This document shows, piece after piece, positions 1,288 to 62,567 of a stretch of DNA of 64,000 bases (its first letter is position 1; each line of letters starts with the position of its first letter). The notes under the pieces are model-generated. The model was not told where the DNA came from, ran no database searches, and saw nothing but the letters and a program-made list of their open reading frames with translations. The position numbers were made by a program, and so were the translations under genes. The DNA comes from Fabrea salina. Its lineage: Eukaryota > Ciliophora > Heterotrichea > Heterotrichida > Fabreidae. The DNA lies in contig JALIHJ010000004.1 of the NCBI GenBank assembly GCA_022984795.1, positions 248,001-312,000 on the forward strand, read 5' to 3'.

Positions 1288-2202
1288 TTAAACGTTGGTA
1301 GAGTAGGAAGTTTCTTCGTCGATGAGGTTGTAAACATCACTCAAGTCGTTTGAATCCCTTGAACACTCAGAAGTTCCTCTTAAGAACTTGTAGCACAAGT
1401 AAACAGACTCTCTAAGCAAAAATATGGCCCAAATCTCTGAAATGTTGAAATCAAATATCAAAAACAAACTCCAAGCTAGATTCGAGTCCAACAGTCCCCA
1501 AAAATTAGTACTTTGGAACATAATAGCGTGCGAAATAGACCTGTAGCCGCAGACAACCAAAGCTGCAATTACCCACTTTATCAGTCTTTTAGGAGTTAAA
1601 CTAGAAAGCTTCATAAGTCTCCTCACCAAAGACACCCCAGAAACCACTAAGCAAACTATCAAGATAGAGATTGAAATCGACTGATAAAGACTCATAGACC
1701 TACTTATTCATTACTCCACAAAAACAAGGGACTCAATCTCATAACACAGCACCAATATCAAACCCCAAGTTAAGCTAGTTAGAGTGTTGTAAAGGATCCC
1801 TATAAGCTTAAGTAACCTGAAGCGTTTTTCTCGAAGGAGTATGTTGAGTTCCCACTTTGTGGAGTAGTATAGTTCTGTCCTGGTTAGACCTTACCAAGCT
1901 ATAATGATAACCGTGATGATAGCTAGGAATGGCAAAATGCCTGTAAAAAGCAAAACTGCGTACACACTGTCTTCACAACTCAATAAACCTCCAGCAAATA
2001 AAGCTACCCTCAAAAGGCAATTAATAGCTGAAAAAAAGTAAAATACCAAGAACTCCTTTGGAACAACCTTGAACTGCTTTCTAGACTTACTAAATGACAC
2101 TAGTAAAAACACTAGCAACAGGGTGTACTCTCCTAAAAGAATCCAATCAGCGATAGTTTCTTCTGTACTGTCAGTTCGTTTTAAATGTTCTCCTAGAGTC
2201 AT
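1288..2202 (-). CDS. Seven-TM protein (TOM1/TOM3/GPR137-like?), two 15-nt introns
   Basis: Three exons join into one 294-residue protein. Introns are at 1880-1894 (GTAAGGTCTAACCAG) and 1700-1714 (GTAATGAATAAGTAG); both are in phase 2 and introduce a TAA if retained. Without splicing the locus looks like two short unrelated frames. The product has about seven hydrophobic segments, including LLLVFLLVSF, LPFLAIITVIIIAW, SISILIVCLVVSGVSLV and the last, WSLFLIFDFNISEIWAIFLL, then a short polar tail. The block IIIAWTELYYSTKW after the third helix and the terminal helix recall the TOM1/TOM3/GPR137 family of 7TM vesicle-membrane proteins; this is a weak likeness. The ATG at 2202 was preferred to an in-frame GTG upstream. 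Confidence 0.8.
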
Positions 2203-2274
2203 TATTTTTATTCGAATTAACACTTTGTGCTATTTATTCACTCCAACTTTCTTCATACATATTTAATAATTTAA

Positions 2275-3747
2275 ATGCGCTTAGCCTTACAAATGATGGG
2301 CCTCTACAGAGGCTTCCGGTCCTCAGATGCCTTCAACGAGTTCCTAGAAACAGACCCTTCACTCGAAGACGTACTTGACCACGAAGCAACTTCTACTGAA
2401 ATTGCTGTCGGCAACCCCAACTTGGTTTCATTGTAACCCTTACTTAGTTTCACTCAAGAGCAACTTGCCAAACTGGTTGGTTACATAACACAAGAGCCCA
2501 CTGACGAAAACGACTACAAAACTGCCCACAAGTTCCCCTACGTGGCATCTGAGTTTTTCAACTCCGATTTCGGAAAGATGCTGGACCTGTTCTACGAAGA
2601 CACCGAACTCATCAGACAACTTTTTAAGATTTTTGAATGCGACGGAGGCATAAACATTCTTTTAACAGGGTACTTCGCTAAAGCTGTGAATGCTTTAATG
2701 CGGCACAATCCCTCGGGCTTCTTGACTTTTATGTACCAAGAGGGATTCCACCTGGAGTTCATCAACCACCTATACAGCTCTTCAATAAGCGATTTAGTTT
2801 ACAACTTCATCGCTAACTCGTTTTGCGAGTTCCTTCCGTACGTCACTCAAATGCTTGAGGGACTCATTGAGAAAATTGGTTGTGATTACAATTCAATGGT
2901 TTCCATTAATTCCCAAAACTTAGTTTCTTCAGTCCTCAAAAGCAGAGACTTCGTGAAGTGCCACTCCGAGATTGTAGACGAAATACTTAAACCAGACAAC
3001 ATTAACAAGATACTAAAATACTTTGCTAGTGAACTAGAGTGGACTGTTGTAGGGGCTGCCAAAGTCACAAAGCAACTTTTAGAGCTAGACACAAACAAAG
3101 CTAGCCTCACTCAAAGCCTAGAACCTTACTTAGAGGTCTTTTCTAACTTGCTGTCCTCCGAAGCTCCTATGCAGTCCTCCCAGTACGGAATGACCCAACC
3201 AAGAGTAGGCCAGGTAAAACTTTTGTTATGTGAAATCGCAGCACACTTAGTAGAAGTGCCTTCACTAGTAAGCAGCGGAATTCTGACTCAAGTCACTGAC
3301 ATGTTTTCAGTCTACAACTACCACACTCTTTTCCAAAACGCTTACTTGACCTTGGTAGAAGCAGTTATGGGTTCGCAAAACAAAGAACTCCAAGAAGCAC
3401 TTTTAGAACAAGCGGGACTAAAGGAGGCTCTTAAGAGCCTAGTAGTTAGTCCCTACGAGCAAATACAAGGACACATCGTAAGACGCGGAGTGATGGGTCA
3501 CGTCTACAACATAGGAGAAATGCTTATCAAAGAAGGAATTGACCTAGGAGAAGACTTTGGCTTCGAACTAAGCGAGCGCAGAAGACTAGAAAACTGGCAC
3601 TTAGGAGGAGAGACTTCTTTTAACTTCGAAAGTGATGAAGAAGCTGAACTAGAAGAAGAAGAAGCACTTCCTGAGGAAGTAAGTTACATGGCCAATAACT
3701 ACTGGAGAATCGAAGTAAACTTGGACGACCTCGAAGACCTAGAATAA
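2275..3747 (+). CDS. SAPS-domain protein phosphatase 6 regulatory subunit
   Basis: A 485-residue protein after removal of a 15-nt intron at 2433-2447 (GTAACCCTTACTTAG, phase 2). Splicing gives ...LVSF|FTQEQLAKLVGYITQEP followed by YKFP-type residues, the typical N-terminal pattern of the SAPS family (L..FLTQ..N...LV.YIT.EP....R...YP..A.EI). The rest has the family's helical repeats, including HNPSGFLTFMY and a glycine-rich GQVKLLLCEIAAHLVEVP. The acidic tail (DEEAELEEEEALPEE) is also usual. SAPS proteins (yeast Sap155/190, human PPP6R) bind the Sit4/PP6 catalytic subunit in the cytosol. The protein is shorter than animal PPP6R (about 800-900 aa). Its stop lies 8 bases from that of the convergent thioredoxin-fold gene. 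Confidence 0.85.
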
Positions 3748-3755
3748 GTAATTAG

Positions 3756-4142
3756 TTACTCGCACTCAATAAACATACCACTTGAGTTCCTAGCTGCTTC
3801 TAAAAGTCCTTCTAGTTGACTCTGGGAAGCACAGCCTACGTACTTAGTGTCTTCTTCCCAGCCGTACCGCCTGATCCTAATTGGATTGCCTTTGAAAAAC
3901 ACCAAAACAGCTGGAGTGGCCGTAACCCCTAGTTCGACTGCGATGTTATGTATTTTGTCAGCGTCCACCAAAAACATATCTGGTTGCTTCAGACTGCAAA
4001 AAATATTAGCTAGTGAAATAGAAAAGGGGTTCCATTTCTGTGCGAACAAAACTATGCGCGGCAGGTTGTCTTGGCATCTGTTTAGAAGTTACGATTTCAT
4101 AAGTTCTGAGTTCACTGCTTGCCATTCGTCCCAGTTCTGCAT
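3756..4142 (-). CDS. Thioredoxin-fold protein without CXXC, one 15-nt intron
   Basis: A 123-residue product starting MQNWDEWQAVNSEL. A 15-nt intron at 4078-4092 (GTAACTTCTAAACAG, phase 2) joins it to PRIVLFAQKWNPFSISLANIF. The order of elements is thioredoxin-like: the strand RIVLF, a WNPFS turn where thioredoxins have WCGPC, the DMFLVDADKIHNIAVELGVTATPAVLVFFKG block with the cis-proline (ATPAVLVF), and a C-terminal helix. Both active-site cysteines are missing (N-P-F-S), so redox catalysis is unlikely; a binding or scaffold role is inferred. It is convergent with the SAPS gene. Confidence 0.8.
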
Positions 4143-4168
4143 GTTCTGTATTCAAATATGGACTTAAG

Positions 4169-5515
4169 TTAGGAGTTACTTATGGAGTTTTTTATTTCAA
4201 AGATTTCGTTGTACTTGGAGATGTGCTGGAACTTAAAAGGCGGACTCACTTCTAGGTACTCAGCTGCAAAGCCCGTAGCAAGGTGTGCTAGGTAAGTGCT
4301 TTGTGTTTCAACTGGGTTCTCTCTGACAATGAGTCCCATACTGCTTTTAGTGGCAGCTTTTGCTAAGTCAACCATTTCAGTGAAAGTCTGCTGGTAGTGC
4401 ATGTTAACTAAGTTAGGAGCCCACCCTTCAGGGAGTTCTGTTACAGTTTGGGGGCTTGTGCACAGTCTTTGTGTTGCTACTGTTCTGTTGGGGTGTTTTT
4501 GAGTAAAGTCCTTCCACCCTTCTAAGTCTTTAGTAGCAAAGGGGTCTTGTATAAAAGCAATGTAAGGTCTTTCGTTCATCAGCTTTTCGTAATAGTCACC
4601 GAGTTGGTTGCTGTCTAGTGGACTTTTGAAGCCTTCCATTTCGTACTTTTCAGACTCAGAGTTGTAGTAGTCGTCAGCGTTGCAGTCTATTCCCAAACAA
4701 ACGTCTTCTCCAGTTCTAAGTCCCGCCTGGTTCACTGAGTCATCTAGTATTTTCAGGCACTCAGCAATAGTATCGCAATTAGGAATGAATGCTCCTCCTG
4801 ACATTCTGATTGATGCTTCTCCTCCTTTAGAAGACCCTAGTATTTTCTTGCAGCAGTCAAAAACCTTTCGGAAGTTTTCTAGTTTCTCCTGAGCACTCCA
4901 GTGGGAATGGCTTTCGCACACATAAAACTTAGTGAACTTGACTTTAGAACCCACTGTTTTGCCTGTGTGAAGTAAGGACATAAGTACTTTAGGAAAGTGG
5001 TTTCCTTCCCACTCTCTACGAGTGTACTTTTCAAACACGTGCAGGTAAAGAGGCACCTTTCTAAAGTAACCAGCTGCAACAACGCAAGCATGAGACAGAG
5101 TCACAGCAGCAGTGTAAGAGAGTCCACTAATTAAGCTGTCGATCTTTCTTTGGTTAGTAACTTCCTGGTCTCTGAGAGTTTCATTTAGTTGCAAAACTTC
5201 TTCAACTTGAATCTCTTCTTCGTGCTCTTCTCTTCCTAACATGAACCCAGGTCCTTTTAACTCAAGTCCTTTGCACTTGCACTCCACAGTTACTTCAAGA
5301 GTCCTTCCTGTTTCCAAGTGCACTTCTCTAGCGTGGATTTCTTTGATAGTAGGCGGTTCTTCACTGAGGTTGGCAAAGAACCCAGCAAGGAAGCTGTAGG
5401 GGTCAGCAGGCATGTTGCGAGCAACTTCGTTGATTCCTTGAGACACAAGTTCTTCAATCTTAAAGCCAGTGACATAGTCGCGTAACTCCTTAGTTATGTA
5501 GGGAGAGTCTACCAT
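4169..5515 (-). CDS. Enolase-like protein (ENO4-type), catalytic residues lost
   Basis: A 448-residue intronless frame. Residues about 20-50 (VSQGINEVARNMPADPYSFLAGFFANLS) resemble the Dpy-30-like dimerisation segment that precedes the enolase domain in ENO4. The rest follows the enolase fold: LSYTAAVTLSHACVVAA, a VCLGIDCNADDYYN block matching the D246 region, FIQDPFATKDLEGW matching the IEDPF motif, and a C-terminal HLATGFAAEYLEV. The metal ligand Glu of IEDPF is Gln, the VADDL motif is VATQRL, the catalytic Lys of LLLK is not conserved (VNMHYQQ), and SHRSGET is replaced by VRENPVET. It is therefore probably a pseudoenzyme; in animals ENO4 is linked to sperm flagella, so a ciliary role is possible. 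Confidence 0.8.
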   Translation of the reverse strand: MVDSPYITKELRDYVTGFKIEELVSQGINEVARNMPADPYSFLAGFFANLSEEPPTIKEIHAREVHLETGRTLEVTVECKCKGLELKGPGFMLGREEHEEEIQVEEVLQLNETLRDQEVTNQRKIDSLISGLSYTAAVTLSHACVVAAGYFRKVPLYLHVFEKYTRREWEGNHFPKVLMSLLHTGKTVGSKVKFTKFYVCESHSHWSAQEKLENFRKVFDCCKKILGSSKGGEASIRMSGGAFIPNCDTIAECLKILDDSVNQAGLRTGEDVCLGIDCNADDYYNSESEKYEMEGFKSPLDSNQLGDYYEKLMNERPYIAFIQDPFATKDLEGWKDFTQKHPNRTVATQRLCTSPQTVTELPEGWAPNLVNMHYQQTFTEMVDLAKAATKSSMGLIVRENPVETQSTYLAHLATGFAAEYLEVSPPFKFQHISKYNEIFEIKNSISNS

Positions 5516-5527
5516 ACTAAATGCTAA

Positions 5528-5917
5528 TTAAGGTTTAAAAGTTTCTGGGTTGTTTTGGAAAACCTGGGGTTTGCTGTGCAAGTTGTCAAAAAAAGAAGCA
5601 CTTTTTCTGTACACTGGCTCTGCTTGGGTTTGTGTTTTGGGAATCGCTTGGAACTGGAAGTCTTCTGCAAAGAGTTGCTTCAAAGAAGGGTTAGGGTTCT
5701 TTTGGAGTTTTCCTTTAGGCTTAAGTGTCCGAAAGTCTTCAATGTGGTTTGCACTCAGAGATACTGAGCTAAAGGTGCTTTTGGACTTGTCGAGGTTGAT
5801 CACTGTGACTTTAGTAAGACTTAGCACTTCTGAGTCAGAGCTCTGTACGTAACCTATGTACTTAAGTCCGTGCTTTGACTTCACGCATATCTTTTTACTC
5901 AAAAAACTAGATTCCAT
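5528..5917 (-). CDS. Small protein with Sm/LSm-like N-terminus
   Basis: A 129-residue frame starting MESSFLSKKICVKSKHG. Residues 8-60 have the layout of an LSm fold (strand KKICVKSKHGLKYIGYVQSSDSE, then VLSLTKVTVINLDKS), comparable with the LSm domain of Scd6/LSM14 or ataxin-2 proteins, followed by a low-complexity basic tail rich in Asn, Lys and Gln-Thr pairs. The start lies 50 bp from the tRNA gene. The family call rests only on the pattern of hydrophobic and glycine residues; it may be an unrelated beta-rich protein. Confidence 0.6.
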   Translation of the reverse strand: MESSFLSKKICVKSKHGLKYIGYVQSSDSEVLSLTKVTVINLDKSKSTFSSVSLSANHIEDFRTLKPKGKLQKNPNPSLKQLFAEDFQFQAIPKTQTQAEPVYRKSASFFDNLHSKPQVFQNNPETFKP

Positions 5918-5966
5918 TATTGAGGTTTTAGAGTATAAAAGCGAACAGTAGTCTATGCAAATAACC

Positions 5967-6039: not shown

Positions 6040-6040
6040 C

Positions 6041-6045
6041 TTTTT
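6041..6045 (+). terminator. Pol III T-run terminator
   Basis: TTTTT two bases downstream of the tRNA-Ala discriminator base. This is the usual polymerase III stop signal. Confidence 0.75.
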
Positions 6046-6051
6046 AGTTAG

Positions 6052-6345: not shown

Positions 6346-6350
6346 TTATA

Positions 6351-10430: not shown

Positions 10431-10432
10431 AA

Positions 10433-14118: not shown

Positions 14119-15336
14119 ATGCAGGAATCACAGCGCTCTTTGAAACTCCAACAACTACGCGAAATCAAAAACCAAGCTAAGTCCAGAAGGCCTTTGACAT
14201 GCTACGACTCACAGTCTTTTGAAAGTTCTTCAATCAGAAGCGACCAAACAGCCTGGGAAGACGTCAGCAGCCTGAAGACCCAACTAGAATCCAAACAAAA
14301 AGCTGCTGAAGCTTCCAAACAAAAATGCGTTGCTGCAGAAACACAGCTGCAAAACGGTAACACCTAAGCAGAAAGACAAAAGTCCAGCATTATGGAAGAA
14401 GAAATTAGAAAACTCAGAGAAACCCTTAACAAAATGCCTTCTGAAGACACCCAAAGCCACCAACTCAAGGCTGAAATCAAACGCACTGACCAAGAAATCG
14501 AACTCAGGAAAAAAGAAATCCAAGAACTTCAGAAGGAAAACTCCGAACTTAAAGAATGCCTTTCTGGCGTCTGGGAAGAATACAACAAGTACAAAGCTTC
14601 TTCTGAACAAAGCTTAAACAAGCTACGCCAAGATATTTACAACCTCCAAAACACCCAGTCGGAAAACCCCACTCAAGAAAGTTCTAGCCACCATCAAGAG
14701 TTACACCTCAAACTAACAACCCTCACTGAGGAACTCTCTAAGTTAGAAGAATCAGTTGCTGCCAAAGAAGAAACCATTGCAATACTTGACTCACAACTAA
14801 ACTCACTGCAGCACCAAAACGAAGAACTCGAAGAAGCCCTAACTAGCTCAAACCTGTCCCAACCTGCAGAGCCCCCTCCAGACAACCCTATCATAGACAT
14901 CCACCGGTTTGCACCTGATGTTGGAAGCACAGGAACCTGGAAACCCGAAGAGTTCAAAAACCAAAACGCCTCACCAGACCCCTTTGAGAACCTGTTCCAC
15001 CAGTCAACAGGAGAAACTTCCCACCAGTTCCAGGAAGAACCCCCTACGCCTCCTAGAAGCTTCGAAGAAGAACAAAAAGAAGGCACTCCTAAACGAGACG
15101 AAGCATTAAGTGGCAGAGCTAGTCGCAGCAGCACTCCCCCAAGAGGGGCTTATGAGAGAGGTAGCCCTGCTCCTTTCCACGGAGGCCAAAGAGTGCACAA
15201 CCTCACCCAGCCCAGCAACCCTACTCACTACTCCATTCCTAACGAAGAAGACCCTGAAGACTTTTTTGCCTTGATGACGAGAGAAGTCTCCGAAAGACCT
15301 AGAAGAGGGAATCTTCCCAGGGGCTTATTTGAATAA
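14119..15336 (+). CDS. Coiled-coil protein, one 15-nt intron
   Basis: 400 residues after removing a 15-nt intron at 14357-14371 (GTAACACCTAAGCAG, phase 1, stop at the internal TAA). Splicing restores QLQN|ERQKSSIMEEEIRKLRE. Residues about 50-260 form a nearly continuous coiled coil; the C-terminal third is Pro/Ser/Glu-rich with GRASRSSTPPRGAYERGSPAPF and a final RPRRGNLPRGLFE. No domain recognised. Confidence 0.85.
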
Positions 15337-17214: not shown

Positions 17215-17562
17215 TTATTCGGGTTCTAAGAAACCCTTTAAAGGAGTCTTTTCAACTACTTGGCTGGCATTTTCGTAGATAAGCTCAAAGGTTTTTTCTT
17301 CAATGAACTCAGCACCTTTGTAGTTACTGTGAGTCATCCACAAACAGAAAAGGGTTTTCAAAACAGTGTAAAACGAGAACCTACGTAAAAATTACTCAGC
17401 CAGCCACCAAAACAAACTCATTTCTAAGTAAGTAAGCAACCCCAACAACACCCAGTAACTCATCCAAAGTCTATCGAATTCTCTTTTTTGGATGCTTTCG
17501 AAAGTCTGAATTAAAGGGTAAACCCAGCACACCCCCAAACTTGCCAAGCAAACAAAGTTCAT
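17215..17562 (-). CDS. REEP/TB2/HVA22-like ER membrane-shaping protein, one 15-nt intron
   Basis: 110 residues after removing the intron at 17381-17395 (GTAATTTTTACGTAG, phase 2). Unspliced, the locus has no long frame. The product follows the TB2/DP1/HVA22 pattern: YPLIQTFESIQKREFDRLWMSYWVLLGLLTYLEMSLFWWLAEFSFYTVLKTLFCLWMTHSNYKGAEFIEEK. The hairpin hydrophobic segments and the WMxYWVLxGLLTxLE motif are typical. These proteins shape ER tubules. Convergent with the PX/FYVE gene (stops 15 bp apart). Confidence 0.85.
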
Positions 17563-24510: not shown

Positions 24511-24912
24511 ATGGAAAGCGCAGGATTTGTGTGCGAGTACCCAACATGCGGACGTATTCTAAGCTCTAAGTACAATCTGAAGCGCCATATAGAGTCTTGC
24601 CACTTAGGCGTGCGGCCATACGAGTGCAACATATGTTTTAAAAGGTTTTCATCCAAACAAAACAAGCGAGAGCACATACGCTTGCAACATTCTTACTCAG
24701 AAACTACGCCAATCCCAACAATCAAAATAGAAACCCACGAAGACATTCCTATACCTAAACTCACTAATCTAGTAATGCAATCCCAAGACCCTGAACTAAG
24801 GCCACTATCGAAGGTAGTAAGAATCTACATGTATTCTGAAGGTTTTTTGAACTCCTCACTGCCTCCTGTGTCCACTGACAGACAAGCTAATTCTTCGCTA
24901 CCTTCTATGTAA
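24511..24912 (+). CDS. Two-finger C2H2 zinc-finger protein
   Basis: 133 residues. Two adjacent C2H2 fingers at residues 8-60: CEYPTCGRILSSKYNLKRHIESCH and CNICFKRFSSKQNKREHIRLQH, joined by a LGVRPYE linker close to the canonical TGEKPY type. The remainder is polar with no other domain. Likely a nucleic-acid-binding regulator. C2H2 proteins of this short type are not numerous in ciliates. Confidence 0.88.
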   Translation: MESAGFVCEYPTCGRILSSKYNLKRHIESCHLGVRPYECNICFKRFSSKQNKREHIRLQHSYSETTPIPTIKIETHEDIPIPKLTNLVMQSQDPELRPLSKVVRIYMYSEGFLNSSLPPVSTDRQANSSLPSM

Positions 24913-24935
24913 ACTAAATTCAGTATTTCTTAACA

Positions 24936-27137: not shown

Positions 27138-27731
27138 ATGGCCCTTGCAGTTTGGAAAATATACTGTCACCTACTAGATAAGAACCCTTTAATAACCCAG
27201 TAAGTACTATTCAGAATGGCAAGTGGAGCTATACTTACAACTGTAGCAGATTTTATATGCCAGATGTTTTTAGAAGAGCACAAAAAATACAACAAAAAAA
27301 GAGGAGCAGTGCTTGCAACCTACGGAGGTGCTGAAATGGGTGTTGAAAGTCGGTTATGGTTTCCACTGCTCGATAGAGTCCTGGGGTCAAGCATGACCTT
27401 TGCTTCGGCTATTAAAAAACTCATTCTTGACCAGTTTTTGTATTCGCCAATTGAAACAGCCTCTATGATGAAGTGGACCAACTTTTTCGAGAGAAGAACA
27501 GAAAAGTTTGAGGACAAAATATCTGATGACTACTTTTTGGCTTTGTTGGGAGTTTACCTTATTTGGATTCCTTCGTCTTTTTTGTCGTTTTATATGATTC
27601 CTTTGAAGTTTAGAGGACTGTTTGTGGGTATGGTTGATTTGGTTTCTGATACTTTCATGGCCTATGCTTCACACAACAACCTCAATCAAAGATTTAAAGC
27701 TTATTTTAGCATAAGTAATGACTCTTCCTAA
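27138..27731 (+). CDS. Mpv17/PMP22-family membrane protein, one 15-nt intron
   Basis: 192 residues. Exon 1 (MALAVWKIYCHLLDKNPLITQ) joins through a 15-nt intron at 27200-27214 (GTAAGTACTATTCAG, phase 2) to MASGAILTTVADFICQ, recreating the family N-terminus (W..Y...L..HP..T......G.L...GD...Q). Further marks: WFPLLDRVLG, KLILDQFLYSPIE, W...F and IWIPSSFLSFYMIPLKFRGLFVG. Mpv17 proteins are four-helix proteins of mitochondrial inner or peroxisomal membranes. Confidence 0.93.
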
Positions 27732-33381: not shown

Positions 33382-33445
33382 GTTGAGTCAATTCTCAGAT
33401 GATAATAATTAGTATTACTTAAAAGTTCTTCATGCTAAGTAAATC

Positions 33446-33970
33446 TTACATTTGTTCAAAGTCTTCGTAACTAATCTGGCCGTTGGTGTCTATATTAGCT
33501 AACTCAAACATTTCGTTGACTTCGTTTTCGTTAACAGTGACTTCAAGTTTGCTTTGCAAAGCACTTTTGATCTCACTTACAGTGGTTTGTCCCTTTTCTC
33601 TTTTGTCAAAGATTTTAAAAGTGTCTTTGATTTCCTGTTCTCGGCCTCCAGAGTGGTACCTTCTAGTGACTATCCCCAAGAGTTCGTTCCACTCCAAAAA
33701 GTTGCGTCGGGGGTCAATGTTGTTGTTGAGCAGCTCTTGCTCAAACTCTTTGCTAGTCATCCGCCAGAACCCGAAGTTCCATAGAATCCCTCTGACGTAG
33801 TTCATCTGGATAACTCCTGGTTGGTCCTCTGTTTCGTACAACTTAACTGCTGTGCTCAAGTCATCTACCTACTTAGGAGTTACTAAGTACTCTGGCAACT
33901 TAGGTGCTTGCTTCGTAGTGCTTTTTGAGCTTTGGTTAGTGTTTTTGCTCCTAATGAAGTTGCGGGCCAT
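33446..33970 (-). CDS. EF-hand protein (calmodulin-like), one 15-nt intron
   Basis: 169 residues. Exon 1 encodes MARNFIRSKNTNQSSK...PEYL and joins through a phase-0 intron at 33869-33883 (GTAACTCCTAAGTAG, ends in an in-frame TAG) to VDDLSTAVKLYETED. Four EF-hand-like units; the only canonical loop is the last (DTNGQISYEDFEQM, ending at the C-terminus), with DKREKGQTTVSE less regular. It may be a centrin-like or DRC-type axonemal protein. Confidence 0.85.
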
Positions 33971-34695: not shown

Positions 34696-35142
34696 CTAAA
34701 CAGCTTGAGACATAGTTCCTTCTTTTTTGACTTGTCCGAGTAAACTCTTGTGGATGTGAGGAATCACTCCTCCTCCTGCAATCGTGGCTTTAATCAGTGA
34801 GTCAAGTTCTTCGTCGCCCCGGATAGCCAACTGCAAGTGCCTAGGAGTGATTCTTTTCACCTTCATGTCTTTGCTGGCGTTGCCTGCGAGTTCCAGCACT
34901 TCGGCAGTCAAGTACTCCATCACGGCAGCTGCGTACACAGCCGCAGTTCCTCCTACTCTCTGAGCCGCACTCATTCTTTCTTTTAAAAAGCGGTGGAGTC
35001 TCCCCACTGGAAACTGCAGACCTGCCCTTATGGAGCGTGACTTTGGAGTAGTTTTAGTTTTGACTGGCACTGCTTTGCCTCCTTTGCCGCCTTTGCCACC
35101 TTTCCCGCCTTTTGTTTTTGCAACCTATTTAGCACTTACCAT
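34696..35142 (-). CDS. Histone H2A.Z, intron directly after the start codon
   Basis: 143 residues. The ATG (35142-35140) is followed at once by a phase-0 15-nt intron at 35125-35139 (GTAAGTGCTAAATAG); exon 2 begins [25 protein letters not shown]. The body is H2[98 protein letters not shown]. The extended acidic patch and [10 protein letters not shown] distinguish it from the canonical H2A at 42.3 kb. The N-tail of GGK repeats, five lysines with GGK spacing, is suited to multiple acetylation. Confidence 0.96.
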
Positions 35143-37692: not shown

Positions 37693-39234
37693 CTACTGTT
37701 TAAGCAATTTATAAATTAAGAAGTTGCACCTTGCCAGAACAAATTCTTCAGACTGGACTCCGGGTTTGGTGAACTCTAGAGTCTTTTTGGTTTTTATGTT
37801 TGTGAGTGCTTCTAAAAGGGCCAAGTCATCTGTGAGTTTCCAGTTACTAGTTTCTTGGACCTTGAGTTTCTTTAGTTTACTGAGTTTTTGTGACTTAGTT
37901 AATTGACCAAACTTAGCAAGAGCTCTGGTGATACTTGCAAGTGTTTTGAGTTTCTGGAAGTCCAAAGTAGCTTCTCCAAGCATTATATCTGTTGCGTTTA
38001 ACTTGGAAGCTTCAGTTAAAGCAGTGAAGAGTTCTAAGTAATGTTTTTGTTTAGACAGGAGTTTTTGGAAGTTTTGGCCAAGAGTGCAGGAAACCTCCAC
38101 AATTAACGCAAAGAAACTGCTGTAGTTATGCATTGCTTCTTTGGAAATAAGGTCTTTCTTTCTAGTAATCAAATGCTCAGGCTCGTAAAAAAGGTGCAGT
38201 AAAAGTTCGTTTTTCTTTTCAAAAGGAACTTTGAGCTCCCTGTGTCTTTTAGCTGCTTTTTTAGGAGGAGAACTTTGAGTTGTGTTAGGTCTTTTAAGCG
38301 GAAGGTTTAGTTTCTGGTGGAACTTTTCTAAGCTTTTGAAGGAGAAGTGCTTAAGGAAGTACTTAGTTTCTACTGAGTGTTCTTTTTCCCACCTTACTAA
38401 GTAAAAGTCTTTGTTAAATACTTGCTTGTAGGAAATTATTTCTTTGAGTTGGGGTTCAGCCAAGGTAGACTTGGGGAACTTAGCAAACTGCTCTTCTTCT
38501 ACCCACAAAGTGTAGTGGGGCGAAAACCCAAGGTACCTTACAAGGCAGCTTCGGTTGGGCTTGACACTGTAAACATTAGCTACTTGGAGGCACTCGTTTC
38601 TGCATAAACAACAAAACCCGAAGTAGGGCCTCTTAGCTAGTTCAGGTTCACAGGAAACGTGGAACTTGGACAAGCACCTACTGCATTTGGTGCTTTGACT
38701 GCTTAGTTGGCTAAAACACTTCTAAGTAAGAGTTACCATGCAGTTCTTAGTGCACACAAAGCACCTTTGGTTATTAGGTAGACAGGAACTGTGGTAAGCT
38801 CTTTTGCAGTAGTTGCAAGTTAAGTTTGGAGATTCCAGTCTGCACAAGAAGCAGTTTGTGAAAAAAGAACCCTTGAAGTAGTTTACAGTTGGAAACACAG
38901 AAGGCAGCTTGTAAAGCGACTTTATGGGAGGCAGAATTATTTTTCTTTCAGATTGGAAGAGTTCTTTGCAGTCTATTTGGAGAGGAAAGTTAAGTTCTGG
39001 GCTTATTCTGGGAGTTTGTGAGCTTTCAAAGTAACTTACGGAACTTGGAGTGTTAAGGGCTAATATGTCCAAGGGGGGCTTTTCTAAAGGGGAGTCTTTA
39101 ATGGAGTAGGCCAAAGGAAGTAGAGGTTTCAGAGTCACTTCAAAGTGGTGCAAGTCATTAGGATTCAGAACTTTTTCCAGAATAGAAAAGTCAACTATTT
39201 GGAACCAGCTGTCAATAGATATACTTTTGCCCAT
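37693..39234 (-). CDS. PHD-type zinc finger / chromodomain-like protein, one 15-nt intron
   Basis: 508 residues. An intron at 38722-38736 (GTAACTCTTACTTAG, phase 0 with terminal TAG) joins NQRCFVCTKNCM to KCFSQLSSQSTKCSRC. The joined centre holds two PHD-like fingers (CFLCRLESPNLTCNYCKRAYHSSC...CFVC; CSRCLSKFHVSC...CCLC), then a chromo-like segment (SCLVRYLGFSPHYTLWVEEEQF) and a second similar one (DFYLVRWEKEHSVETKYF), as at the start of CHD remodellers. No helicase follows; the C-terminal 250 residues are helical. Stop adjoins the stop of the sensor gene. Confidence 0.82.
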
Positions 39235-40320: not shown

Positions 40321-41107
40321 TCACTGATTCATAGGAACTAAACTTAAAAGTTCTTGGTAGAACTTGGCAATCCACTGTTTGGCTTTTTTAGCTTCGTTTT
40401 TGATGTCTAGAATCTGGGTGTCTTGCATCACCATTTCAATAAGGGTGTTGTTTGAGTTTTGCCACACAAAGAACCCTAGCACTGACTTAGACCCTTTCAC
40501 CCAGTCTTCTTCTTCTGGGTTTAAGTCTGAGAAGTTCATAACTACTAAGGCCCCTTTGTAGAGTCTTACTACACGAGTTACCTCAGTAGGGGTTTTGGCT
40601 CCCTTTTTGGTTGTTTGTAACTTAGCGTCTAACAAGGAAGACCCCCCAAGTAACTTGATTTCGGTGTAACTTGTATCCCAGAGCAGCCTGTGTTCGGGTT
40701 CGTTCAGGACCTTCAGAATCAATTCTGAAGGAAGTGTTTCTTTAAAGTTGAGTTGTATATAAATAGCAGAGTCAACCTGCGAAAAGTACTTAAGTTGGAA
40801 CCAGTCCTTCTGCACTTCGTGAGTCCACTCGTAGTGGATAAGTAAGTGCTCCAAGTGCTTGATGCTTTTTAGACTTTGAGAGCCCTCTTCCAACTCAGGG
40901 ATGCTTTTAGATATTGATAAAGGAAGTTCTCCTGTGAGTTCTGGCAAGAAGAAACTGACTTGTCTAGGTTCTGAGTTAGGAGTTTTTGGACCTTTGGTTT
41001 TTAAGCACCTGAACAGGGTGCAGCTTCCTGATGCCTTTCTGTTCAGGAATATACGGGTTAGGTGTTCCCTAAGTGAAGTTTACGTCTCTAAGTTCGCAGC
41101 AGCCCAT
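40321..41107 (-). CDS. START-domain lipid-transfer protein, 5' part uncertain
   Basis: The main frame (40321 to about 40975) encodes a START domain (LEHLLIHYEWTHEVQKDWFQLKYF...KETLPSELILKVLNEPEHRLLWDTSYTEIKLLGG...EVTRVVRLYKGALVVMNFSD..KSVLGFFVWQNSNNTLIEMVMQ). It has no ATG of its own. Upstream an exon MGCCELRD (start 41107, myristoylation-type) with a 15-nt intron at 41069-41083 (GTAAACTTCACTTAG, phase 0) leads into GTPNPYIPEQKGIRKLHPVQVL in a frame that must shift by +1 near the run CCAAAAACTCC (about 40977-40987) to enter the START frame. An assembly error or real indel is possible. Confidence 0.68.
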
Positions 41108-43344: not shown

Positions 43345-43890
43345 ATGTGGAAAACTTCTAAAAGGAGAATATTGTTTTTGCCCGACTTCGAAAAAGGAGG
43401 CATCTTGCCTTACCTAGAAGTAGGCCTTGCAGCGTTAGTGACACTGTAAGTCTCACTTAGAGTTGTAACAGTTTATGTCATTAAATGCTTACGAAAAAAA
43501 CACAAAAGAACTAAAGTTTCTAAAGCCAAGCCACAAAACCCCTCGAATGAAACTACTTTTGAAGAAACTCAGCAGTGCGCTCTTCCAGAAGACATACTCA
43601 AAATCAAAGTTACTGATGGACTTTTTGAGTCTGAAGAAACTTACTACATTAGGTCCCAAGCTGTGGAGCGAATCCCTGACAGGTTCACAGTGCTCCAGGT
43701 GCAGGGTGCAGTATCTATTCTCTGCAGTATTTGCTCCCAAAGGTAAGTTTTAGACAGACTTGCATTGCAGGACTGTGTTCTGAGGTGTAGTTGTCTCAAA
43801 GTAATGCACTTGAGTTGCTGGAGTGAAGACAAAAAACAGTGCTCTGAGTAAGCTTTACTTAGATGTTTGAGAGTGCTGAACCTTTGTTGA
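43345..43890 (+). CDS. Single-TM RING-like protein with three 15-nt introns
   Basis: 166 residues in four exons. Introns: 43446-43460 (GTAAGTCTCACTTAG), 43743-43757 (GTAAGTTTTAGACAG), 43848-43862 (GTAAGCTTTACTTAG), all phase 2. The product starts MWKTSKRRILFLPDFEKGG, has a TM helix (VGLAALVTLVVTVYVI), a Lys-rich linker and a C-terminal zinc finger (CSICSQRLALQDCVLRCSCLKVMHLSCWSEDKKQCSEC) of the pattern CxxC...CxC...HxxC...CxxC, similar to a RING variant. Probably a membrane E3. The locus shows no long uninterrupted frame. Confidence 0.82.
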
Positions 43891-50273: not shown

Positions 50274-51419
50274 CTAGTAGTAAGATTGGTAAAAGTGCTT
50301 TTGGCTGTAAGGAGAGACTTTTGGCTTAAGTATAGGGTTCCCTTTGGCCATGATGGACTTTTGGTCGTAAGTGATGCTTTTTTTCTGCTTGTTTGCCAAG
50401 TGCTTTGGCTTAATTATGTGCGGAAGTTTAGTAATGTTAGGCATGATCCCAGCTGCCCGGTCAGCTGTGGGTGCAGGCAGTGTCGGAGTAGGCAGATTGC
50501 TTGTAACCTTTTCGTTTTCCCGAATGTCTCTGAAGTAGGGGTGCTGAAGTGCTTGTCTAGCAGTGATTCTGTCTTCTTCGATGTAAGTCAGCATCTTAGA
50601 CATCAGGTCTTTGGCTTCAGCTGACACGTGGGGTATCAGTTGGGTGAACCCACTTCCTTCTTGCTTTGGGAAGTTAAAGTCCATGTGAGAAGCCCTTTTC
50701 TGGAACTTCTGCAAAATATCGGGCGGAGGCGTGCCTAGGATGTTGTGGATTTTGTGGACCTGGTCCAACTCATTCTTGCCTGGAAACAAAGGACACAAGG
50801 CCAAAACTTCGAAAAACACACAACCTACACCCCAAATGTCCATTTTGTAGCTGTAGTAACCGTCTGTGAGCAGACACTCTGGAGGACGGTACCAGCGAGT
50901 GGAAATGTACTCTGTGAAAGGCTGTCTGGAGTAAATGCCTCGGCAGGACCCGAAGTCAGCAAGTTTAAGTGAGTCTGTGGAAAGCAGCACGTTTTCAGGC
51001 TTGATGTCTCTGTGGAAGATTCCGTTTCTGTGCATGTGGTCGATGGACTTGAGGAGTTGGTGCATGTAGTACTTAACTTTGTTTTCAGGGGTGTTGCTGC
51101 GTCTTCCACGAATCCACTCATAAAGGTTGAGTTCCATAAGTTCAAAGACCAAAGCCAAACGCCCTGTAGGTTCGTCACTAGATAACTTTTACTATAGGAT
51201 TTCAATGAGTTTGACGATGTGCGGGTGTGGGGAAAGCCGCCGGAGGGCTTGGATTTCACGGAGTTTATTGACTTGTTCGAGGTTCTTAAAGTGGTTCTTC
51301 ATACATTTGATTGCAACGTATTTCCCGGTTTTGATGCTTTGTGCCTTTAAGACCTCCGAAAAAGTGCCTTCACCTTTTTTGGAAATCAATCGATATTCTG
51401 CTTAGAACTTACTGTGCAT
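50274..51419 (-). CDS. MOK: MOK-type ciliary MAP-kinase-like kinase, two 15-nt introns
   Basis: 371 residues. The first intron (51398-51412, GTAAGTTCTAAGCAG, phase 1) lies in codon 3; the second (51178-51192, GTAAAAGTTATCTAG, phase 2) splits LY in KLIEILYDEPTGRLALVFELMELNLYEWIRGR. Spliced protein: MHKYRLISKKGEGTFSEVLKAQ, VAIKCMK, LREIQALRRLSPHPHIVKL, DHMHRNGIFHRDIKPENVLL, DFGSCRGIYSRQPFTEYISTRWYRPPECLLTDG (TEY activation loop), and KKMD-like YKMDIWGVGCVFFEVL. The ALRRLSPHPHI and TEYISTRWYR regions match MOK/RAGE. MAK/ICK/MOK kinases set cilium length. Confidence 0.95.
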
Positions 51420-56870: not shown

Positions 56871-56956
56871 TATAAGTCCCGCCTTTGGCAAATCAAGCAC
56901 AGACCCCAGAATTAAGCATATGAATAATAAGCTGTTCTTAAACAATAAAATCTAAA

Positions 56957-58213: not shown

Positions 58214-58235
58214 TAGTTGTATATTTAATAGTAAA

Positions 58236-59729
58236 ATGGAACTAAGACACCCCGAAGAAGAATGCCTGGAAAACAAAGCTTGGTGCTGGAGTAACGTGCC
58301 TGTGCAGTCAGCCCCTCCTTGCCAAAGGTCGTTGCACACTGGGGTTGTTTTGGAGTCTAACCTTTACGTTTTCGGGGGATACGACGGAGTCCAACGTACT
58401 AATGACTTCTTTAAGTTCTGCTTCAAAACCATGAAGTGGAGTCAAATCCGGGCAAACGGAGTAGTTCCTTCTCCCAGAGACAGGCACGTCGCAGTAGTTA
58501 ACAAAAGGTGTGTTTACATCTATGGAGGGTACGACGGAAACAACCGCGTGAACGACTTCTACGAGTACAATGTTGACTCAAACACCTGGAGAGAACTGCA
58601 TAACTCTGGAACTTCGCCCTCAGCAAGGCACTCGCACGCAGGAGTGGTTTACGAAGGCAGTATGTACATTTTTGCAGGCTACGACGGACTTTACAGAAAT
58701 GACTTCCACAAGTACGACTTTGCAACCAAAACTTGGTCAGTAGTAAACGACTCCTTAGGAGTAAACGAGCACTGGCCAAAGCCTAGGTACAGAACCACTG
58801 TCACTGTAGTAGGCAACCAAATGGTAGTTTTTGGAGGACATGACGGAGCTAGGCAGCTCAACGACTTCTACGCCTGGAGCTTTGGAAACGAGTCCTGGAC
58901 AGAAATAGAAATGATTGGCAGTCCTCCAAGTCCTAGGGACTCCCATGTAGCTGTAGCTTACAAAAACTCCCTTTTTATATTTGGAGGCTCCACAGGAAAT
59001 GCCAGAAGTGACTTTTACGAGTACAAGTTCGAGGAACAAAGGTGGATTCCAGTGGTACCTACAGGAGGGACTCCTCCTACTTCTAGGTTCTGCCACATAG
59101 GAGTGACTCACTCTAAGTGCTTTTACGTGTTTGGTGGCTACGACGGGGCTTCGCGACTGAACGACTTCAAGCAGTTCAGGTTCGAAACAGAGGTTTCAGA
59201 TGTCCCTGAAAGCACCCTTACTTCAGAACTTGAAGTCTACGTAAACAGTGACAAGTTCAGTGACATTTCTTTAGTAGTGGAAGGAAAAGCAATTCCAGCA
59301 CACAAAGTTTTCCTTTGCAGGTCGAAGTACTTTTCAGCGATGTTTTCCCACAACATGAAAGAAAGTGCTTCGACTGAAGTGAGACTTAGCAACATTTCTT
59401 ACAACTCAATGCTGATTGTACTGAAGTACCTGTACACTGACCAAGTAGAGGTAACTCTGGACAACGCACAGGAACTTTTGTTTGCTGCTGACATGTTTTG
59501 TATAGAGCGGCTCAAAAAACTGTGCGAACAAAAAATCCTGGACTCCATTGACGTAGAAAACGCTGCCAGCATCCTCGAGGCTTCTGACGCACACGGAGCT
59601 TCCAATCTCCGAGAAGCTTCACTCCGGTTTATTTTAACAAACTTCGACAGAGTGAGTAAAACTCATTCTTTTAATGAAATGGCCCGGGCTAACATAGAAC
59701 TAGTGCTAGAAATCTTGGCCCTGAGGTAA
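58236..59729 (+). CDS. Kelch-repeat BTB protein (LZTR1-like order)
   Basis: 497 residues from ATG 58236 (MELRHPEEECLENKAW). Six kelch repeats (about residues 25-325; e.g. RSLHTGVVLESNLYVFGGYDG, RDRHVAVVNKRCVYIYGGYDGNNRVNDFYEYNVDSNTW, RDSHVAVAYKNSLFIFGGSTGNARSDFYEYKF) precede a BTB domain (SDISLVVEGKAIPAHKVFLCRSKYFSAMFSHNMKESA...YLYTDQVEVTLDNAQELLFAADMFCIERLKKLCEQKI) and a short BACK-like end. Kelch before BTB is the LZTR1 arrangement; such proteins are CUL3 adaptors. An upstream ATG at 58200 overlaps the PP2C stop and is less likely. Confidence 0.93.
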   Translation: MELRHPEEECLENKAWCWSNVPVQSAPPCQRSLHTGVVLESNLYVFGGYDGVQRTNDFFKFCFKTMKWSQIRANGVVPSPRDRHVAVVNKRCVYIYGGYDGNNRVNDFYEYNVDSNTWRELHNSGTSPSARHSHAGVVYEGSMYIFAGYDGLYRNDFHKYDFATKTWSVVNDSLGVNEHWPKPRYRTTVTVVGNQMVVFGGHDGARQLNDFYAWSFGNESWTEIEMIGSPPSPRDSHVAVAYKNSLFIFGGSTGNARSDFYEYKFEEQRWIPVVPTGGTPPTSRFCHIGVTHSKCFYVFGGYDGASRLNDFKQFRFETEVSDVPESTLTSELEVYVNSDKFSDISLVVEGKAIPAHKVFLCRSKYFSAMFSHNMKESASTEVRLSNISYNSMLIVLKYLYTDQVEVTLDNAQELLFAADMFCIERLKKLCEQKILDSIDVENAASILEASDAHGASNLREASLRFILTNFDRVSKTHSFNEMARANIELVLEILALR

Positions 59730-59760
59730 TGCTAATAATGTGAAATAAGTAATTTAAGAA

Positions 59761-60954
59761 ATGCAGAATAGGTTTGCTGAACCCTTAACAGCTAGGAAAA
59801 ACGCCAGACTCAACTTCCTCCAAAAACAGACACTTAACTTGCGCACTTACAAAAGCGACCTTGAGTACTGTGTACTTAACTCCAAACAAACACTCCAACA
59901 ACTACTCTCTAGCAAACTAGTGTCCTCAACCAGGAACTTAGATCTTTCTGCAGAAACAGACCACTCCTCGCACGTGCCTCTGCGAGTATTCGAAGCTGCT
60001 TTGGCAAAAAACAAAGAACTCTACAATGAACTCAAAAACATCTGGGAACAAAACGAGCACCAAGAAGCACAGTGCTTGATCACTGAACAACTTACTAACG
60101 AAAACCTCAACAAAGAAGAAGAACAACTAGAGGAACTCCAAGAAGCCGTTGATGACCTTAAGTACCTCCTCGAAAAAAAGCAAGAACGCATCAAACTCCT
60201 GAATAGGAAAAATTGGGACTTGAAAGAACGTATGGCCCTCCTCAAAGAAAAAAGAATCATAATTCTCCCTCTTTCAGAAGACTACCTTTCAAAGCACAAC
60301 ACCCTTCAAACAATCAAGTCCAACTTAGCTAGTCTCTCCAAAAAACTCCAAATTACTGAAATGCAAAAAGACCAACTTGTGGAGTACCGCGAGTTCTTAG
60401 CCTCAAAACTCAAACCCTACAAAACTTTCTTCAGAAACTCAAAAAGCCTCAAAACTAACTTCAGTTACCAGCTGGAGTTCCCTAATGACAGCTATAGTTT
60501 AGAGGAGCTTTCAGAAAACTTCCAGTCTAGTCCTGCAAAAAGTCCCTCTTTGCCCAAGTTGGACTTTTCTAAAATCACTTCTGAAGAACAGGACTCTTCC
60601 AACCAAGCCTTTGCTACTATCCAACACCTCGAAAGGGTCTGCCAAGAAAAGTCCCAGTACCTCGAAACTCTGCGTTCCCAAGCTATTGAATTGCTGAACC
60701 AAAAAAAGCAACTCTCCAAAAAATCCCCTTACACAGAGACTCCCTTCAAGCCTCTCAAAAAGACCAAACCCAAAAGTAACACCCGGGACTACTTTTGCAA
60801 GTCAAAGTCTTCCAGAAAACTTAGTTTGGCTTCTGAAGAGTCTTCAGAAAAGAACCCCAACGACATTTCGAGCCTCATGGAAAGTTATGTAATGAGTTTC
60901 GAGGACCTTGAGCCTGACAGTGTACTTGTGGACTACTTAGACCAAATCATTTAG
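59761..60954 (+). CDS. Coiled-coil protein
   Basis: 397 residues, mostly helical: residues 10-80 and 95-230 (LTNENLNKEEEQLEELQEAVDDLKYLLEKKQERIKLLNRK...), then a Ser/Pro-rich segment, another helix (FATIQHLERVCQEKSQYLETLRSQAIELLNQKKQL) and a charged C-terminus. No signature seen; the coiled-coil plus C-terminal acidic motif (EDLEPDSVLVDYLDQII) would fit a scaffold. Confidence 0.78.
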   Translation: MQNRFAEPLTARKNARLNFLQKQTLNLRTYKSDLEYCVLNSKQTLQQLLSSKLVSSTRNLDLSAETDHSSHVPLRVFEAALAKNKELYNELKNIWEQNEHQEAQCLITEQLTNENLNKEEEQLEELQEAVDDLKYLLEKKQERIKLLNRKNWDLKERMALLKEKRIIILPLSEDYLSKHNTLQTIKSNLASLSKKLQITEMQKDQLVEYREFLASKLKPYKTFFRNSKSLKTNFSYQLEFPNDSYSLEELSENFQSSPAKSPSLPKLDFSKITSEEQDSSNQAFATIQHLERVCQEKSQYLETLRSQAIELLNQKKQLSKKSPYTETPFKPLKKTKPKSNTRDYFCKSKSSRKLSLASEESSEKNPNDISSLMESYVMSFEDLEPDSVLVDYLDQII

Positions 60955-60980
60955 CTACAGATAATTTAATTAACTTGTAA

Positions 60981-62000
60981 ATGGACGATTCCCTTCGGTT
61001 CAAAATCATCAGCAACGACGGCAGCCGTGAGAACATGGTTAGTCTCATTAAACTCAAAAACATCTTCAGAAAGCAACTTCCCAAGATGCCAGGGGAATAC
61101 ATTGTGCGTTTGGTGCTGGACAGGAAACACAGTTCGATGGTTGCTACTAGGGACGAAGCTATCATTGGCGGGGTTTGTTTCCGGACTTTCGAAGGCAAGA
61201 ACTTTGCTGAAATAGCTTTTTTGGCAATAACTTACTTAGAACAAGTAAAGGGGTTTGGAACTCAACTCATGAACGCTTTCAAAAACTACATAATGAACCA
61301 AGGAATCAGGTACTTCTTGACTTACGCAGACAACTTTGCTTTGGGGTACTTCAAAAAGCAAGGCTTCACAGCTGACGTGCAGAGTGTCCTGCCTGAGGCT
61401 GTTTGGAAAGGCTACATCAAAGACTACGACGGAGGCACTCTTATGGTGTGCAAACTCGACGACTCAGTTGACTACACTATTATTTACGACACAGTCAAGC
61501 AGCAATTGGGCTTTGTAAGGACAGTAGTTGACAAAGTATCCCCTCACAAAATACTTCGCAGGCCCAACTCCAAGTTACTTGAAGAGGGCAGCTGCAACTA
61601 CACAGAAGTGGAAGGCCTAGCACAAGTAGCTTACGAGCCCTCTTTAGAAGTCTCTATGGAAGAAGAAGAAAAGGACGCGAAAACTGCGTGCTTCCACTTC
61701 ATTCTGGACCAAATGACGGCTGACAACTCTTCCTGGCCCTTTAGAGAACCTGTAAGTAACGAAGTAGCTCCGGACTACTACGAAATCATCAAAGACCCAA
61801 TTGACCTCAAAACAATGCGGGGAAAAGTCAACGTTGGTTACTACGACAACATAAAGAAGTTCGTAGAGGATATTGAAAAAATGTTCAGTAACTGCAGGAT
61901 TTACAACAAGAAGGACACTGTTTACTACAAAATGGCAGATAAGCTTGAGGAGTCCATCAAACCCTTCATTGAGCAACTCAAAGAATTTACCCAGTGCTAA
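60981..62000 (+). CDS. GCN5: GCN5-family histone acetyltransferase with bromodomain
   Basis: 339 residues. GNAT domain (SLIKLKNIFRKQLPKMPGEYIVRLVLDRKHSSMVATRD, IGGVCFRTFEGKNFAEIAFLAITYLEQVKGFGTQLMNAFKNYI with the catalytic Glu of FAEIAF and the acetyl-CoA loop QVKGFG; YFLTYADNFALGYFKKQGF; GYIKDYDGGTLMVCKL) and C-terminal bromodomain (WPFREPVSNEVAPDYYEIIKDPIDLKTMRGKVNVGYYDNIKKFVEDIEKMFSNCRIYNKKDTVYYKMADKLE). The animal-type PCAF N-terminus is absent; size is like ciliate/yeast GCN5. Part of SAGA/ADA in most eukaryotes. Confidence 0.97.
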   Translation: MDDSLRFKIISNDGSRENMVSLIKLKNIFRKQLPKMPGEYIVRLVLDRKHSSMVATRDEAIIGGVCFRTFEGKNFAEIAFLAITYLEQVKGFGTQLMNAFKNYIMNQGIRYFLTYADNFALGYFKKQGFTADVQSVLPEAVWKGYIKDYDGGTLMVCKLDDSVDYTIIYDTVKQQLGFVRTVVDKVSPHKILRRPNSKLLEEGSCNYTEVEGLAQVAYEPSLEVSMEEEEKDAKTACFHFILDQMTADNSSWPFREPVSNEVAPDYYEIIKDPIDLKTMRGKVNVGYYDNIKKFVEDIEKMFSNCRIYNKKDTVYYKMADKLEESIKPFIEQLKEFTQC

Positions 62001-62015
62001 TAAGAATATAATAAA

Positions 62016-62567
62016 ATGTCGTTACTTTACACTAACGAGCACCTGGCTTGGAAACAACGAGTCCAGAAAGAAGTGTTCGCCAACTCTAACTTTTACACGT
62101 AAGAACTACTCAGCACCTACTCTTCTTTCCCCAAAACCACCCAAAATTTCTACAAGGCTCCTCGGTCCAAAAGCAGTTCCCGGAGGAAAGTGTCTCCTAG
62201 AAGGAGTGTTCCTGACCTCCAGAACTATTCTGTTTATGCAGAGTGCAGAGGCAAGTACGCCAGACCTCCTCCCATAGCCCGTCCTCAAAACGTTGAAGTT
62301 GACCCTGAAATTCGGTTGTCCCGGAGAAGCAGCCTTCCTCCTGGATCAAAAGCCTCAAGTCGGAAGTCTGAACTTCCACAGAAGTCATTGGTTAACGAAC
62401 CCAACAACCCAGAGGAGCAAGAAGTCAACCAGGATGACTCGGCCTCCCAAAAATCCTTTGTCACTACTAGTTCTCAGAAAAAGTACATTGAAGAACTTGA
62501 AGGACTTCTCAAGGAAGAAAGGATGAAAAGGATCCAGGCCGAAAACTCCATTAAGCAGAATGCTTGA
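62016..62567 (+). CDS. Hypothetical basic protein, one 15-nt intron
   Basis: 178 residues after removing the intron at 62099-62113 (GTAAGAACTACTCAG, phase 2). Exon 1 (MSLLYTNEHLAWKQRVQKEVFANSNFY) joins TTYSSFPKTTQNFYKAPRSK. Mid part basic and Ser-rich (SSSRRKVSPRRSVPD), C-terminus short coiled coil (KKYIEELEGLLKEERMKRIQAENSI). The aromatic/Tyr-rich N-terminus recalls microtubule inner proteins, but no family is recognised. Confidence 0.75.

What the first reader, a model, noticed from the sequence alone, without database searches (positions are those of the whole stretch)
1700..62113. Seventeen introns, all exactly 15 nt, with an invariant A at position 10
Reconstructed introns are at 1700-1714, 1880-1894, 2433-2447, 4078-4092, 14357-14371, 17381-17395, 27200-27214, 33869-33883, 35125-35139, 38722-38736, 41069-41083, 43446-43460, 43743-43757, 43848-43862, 51178-51192, 51398-51412 and 62099-62113. 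All start GTAA, all end YAG, all have A at position 10 (preceded by T in 15 and C in 2), and no other length was found. The A is the obvious branch-point candidate, only five bases from the end, so 5' site, branch point and 3' site overlap one 15-nt unit. 15-nt introns are established for heterotrichs; the position-10 pattern here is read directly.
Basis: partly seen in the sequence, partly recalled or inferred. Interest (0 to 1): 0.75.

Follow-up and report, generated by a model that had tools for sequence, protein, structure and literature searches.

The report
Known 15-base introns in a ciliate
These are the tiny 15-base introns of heterotrich ciliates, with a nearly unchanging A five bases before the end that is very probably the branch point; the pattern is real but was already in print for this group.

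Summary
All 17 stretches read as stated. Tests that did not ask for A at position 10 recover it: removing GTAA..YAG stretches rescues reading frames at length 15 (13, all with A10) but hardly at lengths 11-14 and 16-30 (0-4 each). A gene model requiring only GTA..AG introns of 15 nt in 314 kb, 22 with A10. Genome-wide, 15-mers with A10 are about twice as frequent as controls of length 14 and 16; those without A10 are not in excess over length 16. One intron was missed (33435-33449). Outside the window GTAA and YAG are preferences; A10 stays. The pattern is known: in Stentor coeruleus 8,005 of 8,173 15-nt introns carry the branch-point A at position 10, and one is cited for Fabrea salina, which this genome probably is. 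U1, U2 and U6 look conventional. A modest new detail: the introns are multiples of three, and each splice signal can supply the stop codon of one phase; 38 of 41 modelled introns carry an in-frame stop. No RNA data were available. Real, ordinary for the group, already published.

The parts
1700..1714 (-). 15-nt intron GTAATGAATAAGTAG, phase 2, gene modelled at 1288-2202
1880..1894 (-). 15-nt intron GTAAGGTCTAACCAG, phase 2, same gene
2433..2447 (+). 15-nt intron GTAACCCTTACTTAG, phase 2, SAPS-domain gene 2275-3747
   Evidence: the spliced protein aligns over the junction (residue 53) to a 24%-identical SAPS homologue without a five-residue gap
4078..4092 (-). 15-nt intron GTAACTTCTAAACAG, phase 2, gene 3756-4142
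14357..14371 (+). 15-nt intron GTAACACCTAAGCAG, phase 1 (in-frame stop TAA at 9-11), gene 14119-15336
17381..17395 (-). 15-nt intron GTAATTTTTACGTAG, phase 2, gene 17215-17562 (TB2/DP1/HVA22 family)
   Evidence: Pfam match 16-84 of the spliced protein spans the junction at residue 56
27200..27214 (+). 15-nt intron GTAAGTACTATTCAG, phase 2, Mpv17/PMP22-family gene 27138-27731
   Evidence: family (their matches lie after the junction)
   Evidence: complete EF-hand_7 match 106-171 of the spliced protein, junction at residue 169
33869..33883 (-). 15-nt intron GTAACTCCTAAGTAG, phase 0 (in-frame stop is the TAG acceptor), EF-hand gene 33419-33970
35125..35139 (-). 15-nt intron GTAAGTGCTAAATAG directly after the ATG of a histone H2A gene 34696-35142, phase 0
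   Evidence: an H2A paralogue has a 15-mer at the same site sharing only GTAA, A10 and AG
38722..38736 (-). 15-nt intron GTAACTCTTACTTAG, phase 0, gene 37693-39234
41069..41083 (-). 15-nt intron GTAAACTTCACTTAG; gene model incomplete, the downstream frame needs a second event
43446..43460 (+). 15-nt intron GTAAGTCTCACTTAG, phase 2, gene 43345-43890
43743..43757 (+). 15-nt intron GTAAGTTTTAGACAG, phase 2, same gene
43848..43862 (+). 15-nt intron GTAAGCTTTACTTAG, phase 2, same gene
51178..51192 (-). 15-nt intron GTAAAAGTTATCTAG, phase 2, in a protein kinase gene 50274-51419 (closest named relative LF4_2 of Blepharisma)
   Evidence: seven of the eight homologues aligned cover this junction, none has an insert there
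51398..51412 (-). 15-nt intron GTAAGTTCTAAGCAG, phase 1 (TAA at 9-11), third codon of the same kinase gene
   Evidence: six of the eight homologues aligned cover this junction, none has an insert there
62099..62113 (+). 15-nt intron GTAAGAACTACTCAG, phase 2, gene 62016-62567

Best explanation
These are ordinary heterotrich spliceosomal introns of fixed 15-nt length. The major spliceosome removes them: U1 and then U6 read the GTAA donor, U2 reads the pyrimidine-T-A around position 10, A10 attacks the donor to give a 10-nt lariat loop with a 5-nt tail, and the AG five bases on is the acceptor. Shown here: sequence, length, A10 constancy, restored reading frames, homologues without an insert at two junctions, conventional U1, U2 and U6 genes. 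Inferred: that A10 is the nucleophile, and that splicing happens at these sites in this cell.
For: Length and A10 signal found without an A10 condition and against shuffles; 22 of 22 GTA..AG calls at 15 nt have A10, 14 of 14 in held-out DNA, against 7 of 33 calls at lengths 12-14 and 16-19 with A at L-5; genome counts 2,873 with A10 against 1,424 (L=16) and 1,383 (L=14), while 15-mers without A10 (2,901) do not exceed those at L=16 (3,484); of the first 100 listed of 496 GTAAGTNNTNNNYAG matches, 29 lack A10, about what background predicts (26-30); kinase homologues from Stentor, Blepharisma and an MMETSP transcript read straight through both junctions; U2 keeps GUAGUA, U6 ACAGAGA, U1 ACUUACCUG; same pattern published for Stentor.
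Against: No RNA or lariat data. In the 200-kb held-out stretch the raw count of GTAA..YAG 15-mers is not above other lengths (55 against 37-74); only the A10 subset (27 against 8-23) and the frame-rescue test (17, 16 with A10, against 0-9) show the signal. There, with a bonus for GTAA..YAG, 3 of 22 calls at L=15 lacked A10, and other lengths gave 1-12 calls. With no intron penalty the GTA..AG calls are noisy: A10 in 12 of 18, 28 of 54 and 4 of 15; with only GT..AG required and a penalty, 8 of 8, 14 of 16 and 2 of 2. The tool's own control (pattern read backwards) gives for L=14 with A9 1,383 against 610, a higher ratio than for L=16 with A11 (1,424 against 922); I did not count L=14 without A. 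Some introns have A at 11 as well, so the nucleophile is not fixed by sequence alone.
Confidence: 0.86

Rival explanations
1. Introns, but the branch nucleophile is not always A10. Introns reading CTAA at positions 8-11 could use A11 in the classical CUAA register with U2, while TTAC or TCAC introns use A10; A10 would be constant partly because it pairs with U2.
For: In 113 T9-A10 15-mers from contigs other than the window's, purine at 11 follows C8 in 23 of 44 and T8 in 9 of 46 (Fisher p=0.0019); I had noticed this first in the 17 window introns. U2 GUAGUA is intact. The CUAA register is recalled from yeast.
Against: 30 of the 44 with C8 have no A at 11, so A10 must serve there. The set is not cleaned of chance matches and repeated sequences.
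Confidence: 0.1
2. The 15-mers are not introns but 5-codon insertions, or DNA-level insertions left in the assembly.
For: 15 is a multiple of three; no transcript reads were examined.
Against: All 17 carry an in-frame stop in the modelled frame, have donor, branch and acceptor letters that fit U1, U2 and U6, and homologues lack the two in the kinase.
Confidence: 0.02
3. The A10 constancy is a selection effect of the first reader, who may have picked 15-mers by eye.
Against: Searches did not ask for A10; held-out DNA gives 14 of 14 at the penalty used.
Confidence: 0.01

Closest known systems
15-16 nt introns of Stentor coeruleus (Nuadthaisong et al. 2022, PMC9505925: abstract, sections 1, 2.1, 2.5, 3.1 and part 1 of 2 of figures and tables read; Slabodnick et al. 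2017 cited there, not held)
   Same: 15 nt, GT..AG, A at position 10 in 8,005 of 8,173, intron genes a minority (18.14% there; 14 of 71 modelled genes in the window), U1, U2 and U6 present
   Different: 7.19% of Stentor introns are 16 nt, none convincing here; Stentor introns 75.63% A+U, the 17 here 64%; the paper finds no strong branch consensus besides U-richness, here T9 in 15 of 17 and C or T at 8 in 16 of 17
Tiny introns of Fabrea salina (Zhang et al. 2022, Mol Biol Evol msac062; not held; known here through a citing sentence in PMC13344042, passages seen)
   Different: nothing known to differ; probably the same species, not proven
Introns of Blepharisma stoltei (PMC9942806, passages)
   Same: predominantly 15 and 16 bp
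   Different: UGA read as tryptophan there, while the standard code scores better here; PMC10946202 (passages) names four ciliates with a conserved A, Stentor among them, and says it was not detected in the others it examined
Introns of Loxodes magnus (PMC11441545, passages)
   Same: very short
   Different: mode 17 bp, under 16 bp negligible, multiples of three depleted

Membership tests
Heterotrich 15-nt spliceosomal introns | length 15 (sometimes 16) nt | tested here: met
   the A-at-L-5 excess and the frame rescue stand out at L=15 only (in the 200 kb less sharply)
Heterotrich 15-nt spliceosomal introns | GT..AG ends | tested here: met
   17 of 17 in the window; GCAA..YAG and ATAA..YAC show 2 and 0 frame rescues at L=15 in the 200 kb, within the range of other lengths
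Heterotrich 15-nt spliceosomal introns | A at position 10 | tested here: met
   22 of 22 calls made without asking for it; 3 exceptions of 22 with a bonus in the 200 kb
Heterotrich 15-nt spliceosomal introns | a 16-nt minority class with A at position 11 | tested here: inconclusive
   1,424 L=16 matches with A11 against 1,383 at L=14 with A9; A share at L=16 29%
Heterotrich 15-nt spliceosomal introns | major-spliceosome snRNAs present | tested here: met
   U1, U2 and U6 found once each over cut-off; U4 and U5 not sought in the genome
Heterotrich 15-nt spliceosomal introns | spliced in vivo | not testable with these tools
   no RNA reads of this organism
Fabrea salina genome | species identity | tested here: inconclusive

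The most novel reading that the evidence does not exclude
In this genome introns are locked at one length that is a multiple of three, and the splice signals double as stop codons, one for each phase: the donor's TAA (2-4) in phase 2, the branch site's TAR (9-11) in phase 1, the acceptor's TAG (13-15) in phase 0. Spliceosome and translation surveillance would jointly fix nearly the whole intron, and the phase would predict which letters may vary.
Probability: 0.35. Interest if true: 0.5.

Novelty: already known. Interest (0 to 1): 0.22.

Why it matters
It confirms from raw sequence, with held-out controls, that the fixed donor-branch-acceptor spacing reported for Stentor holds in a heterotrich-like genome whose window has 42% G+C, where branch-site letters are easier to read. 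Introns this short are a hard test of how a spliceosome fits a 10-nt lariat, and a genome with both CTAA and TTAC branch sites would let lariat sequencing decide which A is used.

Tried and rejected
14-nt introns: the first 100 listed L=14 matches held several ending TACTTAG; six were fetched. Removing 14 nt opens no frame of 30 codons on both sides in any of the six; the two best (18/55 and 30/20 codons) score poorly as coding, and the first lies beyond the end of an ORF. Introns outside coding frames are not excluded. 16-nt introns: 41039-41054(-), GTATATTCCTGAACAG, would restore the frame after intron 41069. But in 314 kb L=16 gave 6 calls against 6, 1, 2, 4 and 2 at L=13, 14, 17, 19 and 20 (penalty 2), and 4 against 3, 1, 2, 2 and 2 (penalty 4), so it is at most level with noise, and the resulting protein has no Pfam match. 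I had taken that protein for a START domain by eye; this was not borne out. Left open. A gene model allowing any GT..AG of 10-60 nt gave mainly long introns bridging neighbouring ORFs, which I judged spurious. TGA as tryptophan scored lower than the standard code in all three regions (2547.5 against 2589.6, 7686.2 against 7701.7, 1820.9 against 1823.0); a rough test with a fixed score for TGA, and the last difference is small. 24909-24923 was not accepted: it adds two residues and lacks T9. Papers: Slabodnick 2017 and Zhang 2022 are not held; searches for Fabrea with its genome size or with branch point and introns found no paper. (Stentor, introns, in-frame stop, nonsense-mediated) was seen only as a listing of 10 of 180, so I cannot say that the stop-in-each-phase reading is not in print.
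Full report
Check. The 17 stretches are exactly as described. GTAA..YAG stretches whose removal joins two open frames of at least 30 codons while the unspliced frame stops inside number 13 at length 15 and 0-4 at each other length from 11 to 30; all 13 have A10. A dynamic-programming gene model trained on the window's codon use, given a bonus for GTAA..YAG of one length at a time, called 19 introns at length 15 (19 with A10) and 0-5 at each other length from 11 to 30; the 19 include all 17. Under a penalty instead of a bonus it called 8 of the 17 and nothing new.

Held-out DNA. The window is contig 37, 248001-312000, of an 18,328,466-base genome in 103 contigs. I fetched 200 kb next to it and 50 kb of another contig. 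Requiring only GTA..AG and charging a penalty, the model called 15-nt introns 8 times in the window, 13 in the 200 kb and once in the 50 kb; all 22 have A10. Lengths 12-14 and 16-19 gave 0-4 calls each per region, 33 in all, 7 with A at L-5. Of the 22, 19 start GTAA, 19 end YAG and 18 have T9; of the 14 held-out, 11, 11 and 11. So A10 is the constant; GTAA and YAG are strong preferences. Results against: in the 200 kb the raw count of GTAA..YAG 15-mers is not above other lengths, 3 of 22 bonus-driven calls lack A10, with only GT..AG required 14 of 16 calls in the 200 kb have A10, and with no penalty the calls are noisy: 12 of 18, 28 of 54 and 4 of 15. Introns are denser in the window (19 modelled in 64 kb) than in the 200 kb (19) or the 50 kb (3).

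Whole genome. GTAA-N5-A-NN-YAG occurs 2,873 times; the matching controls are 1,424 (length 16) and 1,383 (length 14). Without A10 the 15-mers number 2,901, fewer than the 3,484 at length 16; length 14 without A was not counted. The excess with A10 is about 1,470-1,690, by two ways of setting the background. The tool's backward-pattern controls are 819, 1,806, 922, 610 and 2,356; by these, length 15 with A stands out most (3.5 times) and length 14 with A is also somewhat high (2.3 times against 1.5-1.6 for the rest). Of 496 GTAAGTNNTNNNYAG matches (27 for the backward pattern), the first 100 listed contain 29 without A10; background measured at other lengths in 314 kb (179-206 per genome), with A at about 29%, predicts about 26-30.

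Genes. The kinase at 50274-51419 is the clearest case. I aligned 8 homologues out of the 120 listed of 5,844, among them ones from Blepharisma (named LF4_2), Stentor and an MMETSP transcript; 6 cover the first junction and 7 the second, and none has an insert. The spliced TB2/DP1/HVA22 protein matches its Pfam family across its junction. The histone H2A gene has its intron directly after ATG; a paralogue on contig 16 has a 15-mer at the same place, identical only at positions 1-4, 10, 14 and 15. That 15-mer has no in-frame stop, so it could also be translated; I take it as a probable intron only. Of the 14 intron-bearing models I scanned ten against Pfam; four of the ten had no match.

Machinery. 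U1, U2 and U6 genes were found once each. U2 keeps GUAGUA, U6 ACAGAGA, U1 ACUUACCUG, so recognition is expected to be conventional. In 113 T9-A10 15-mers from contigs 1-14, positions 8 and 11 are not independent: purine at 11 in 23 of 44 with C8 and 9 of 46 with T8 (p=0.0019). I had noticed this in the window first. It may mean two pairing registers with U2; the set contains chance matches and repeated sequences, so this is a lead.

Length and phase. These introns are multiples of three, so retention would not shift the frame. Of 41 introns modelled with A10 required in 314 kb, 38 carry an in-frame stop: phase 2 in 22 of 22 through the donor's TAA, phase 1 in 3 of 5 through TAA at 9-11, phase 0 in 13 of 14 through the acceptor TAG. 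Phase 0 introns end TAG in 13 of 14, phase 2 in 12 of 22 (p=0.025). Stops help detection; but in-frame stop-less 15-mers within modelled genes number only 3, no more than stop-less matches at lengths 12, 18, 21 and 24 (7, 4, 8, 2; those lengths were given no bonus), so the near-absence of stop-less introns looks real. The H2A paralogue may be an exception. Phase 2 is over-represented (22 of 41, p=0.008). Three matches to the UPF1 zinc-binding domain exceed its cut-off, so nonsense-mediated decay is plausible. Selection for stops or non-multiple-of-three lengths in ciliate introns is known from Paramecium and Nyctotherus (PMC2633312 passages).

What is known. PMC9505925 reports for Stentor coeruleus 8,806 introns, 92.81% of 15 nt, with the branch-point A at position 10 in 8,005, and states the resulting 10-11 nt lariat with a 5-nt tail. 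PMC13344042 (passages) cites the conserved branch-point A for Stentor coeruleus and Fabrea salina. The finding is therefore correct and already known in kind.

Noticed in passing
   Followed up: yes
41039-41054 (-): A possible 16-nt intron GTATATTCCTGAACAG that would restore the frame after intron 41069; level with noise statistically.
   Followed up: partly
window and held-out DNA, intron phases: Each splice signal can supply a stop codon in one phase; 38 of 41 modelled introns have an in-frame stop.
   Followed up: partly
35125-35139 (-) and L002: H2A paralogues share a 15-mer directly after ATG; only GTAA, A10 and AG are the same.
   Followed up: yes
15-mers on contigs 1-14, positions 8 and 11: C8 goes with purine 11, T8 with pyrimidine 11.
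   Followed up: partly
window against C37 48-248 kb and C16 60-110 kb: Intron density differs between regions: 19 modelled in 64 kb, 19 in 200 kb, 3 in 50 kb.
   Followed up: no
genome-wide L=14 matches: GTAA..A..YAG 14-mers are somewhat high against the backward-pattern control (1,383 against 610), and several of the first 100 end TACTTAG; six checked gave no support for introns.
   Followed up: partly
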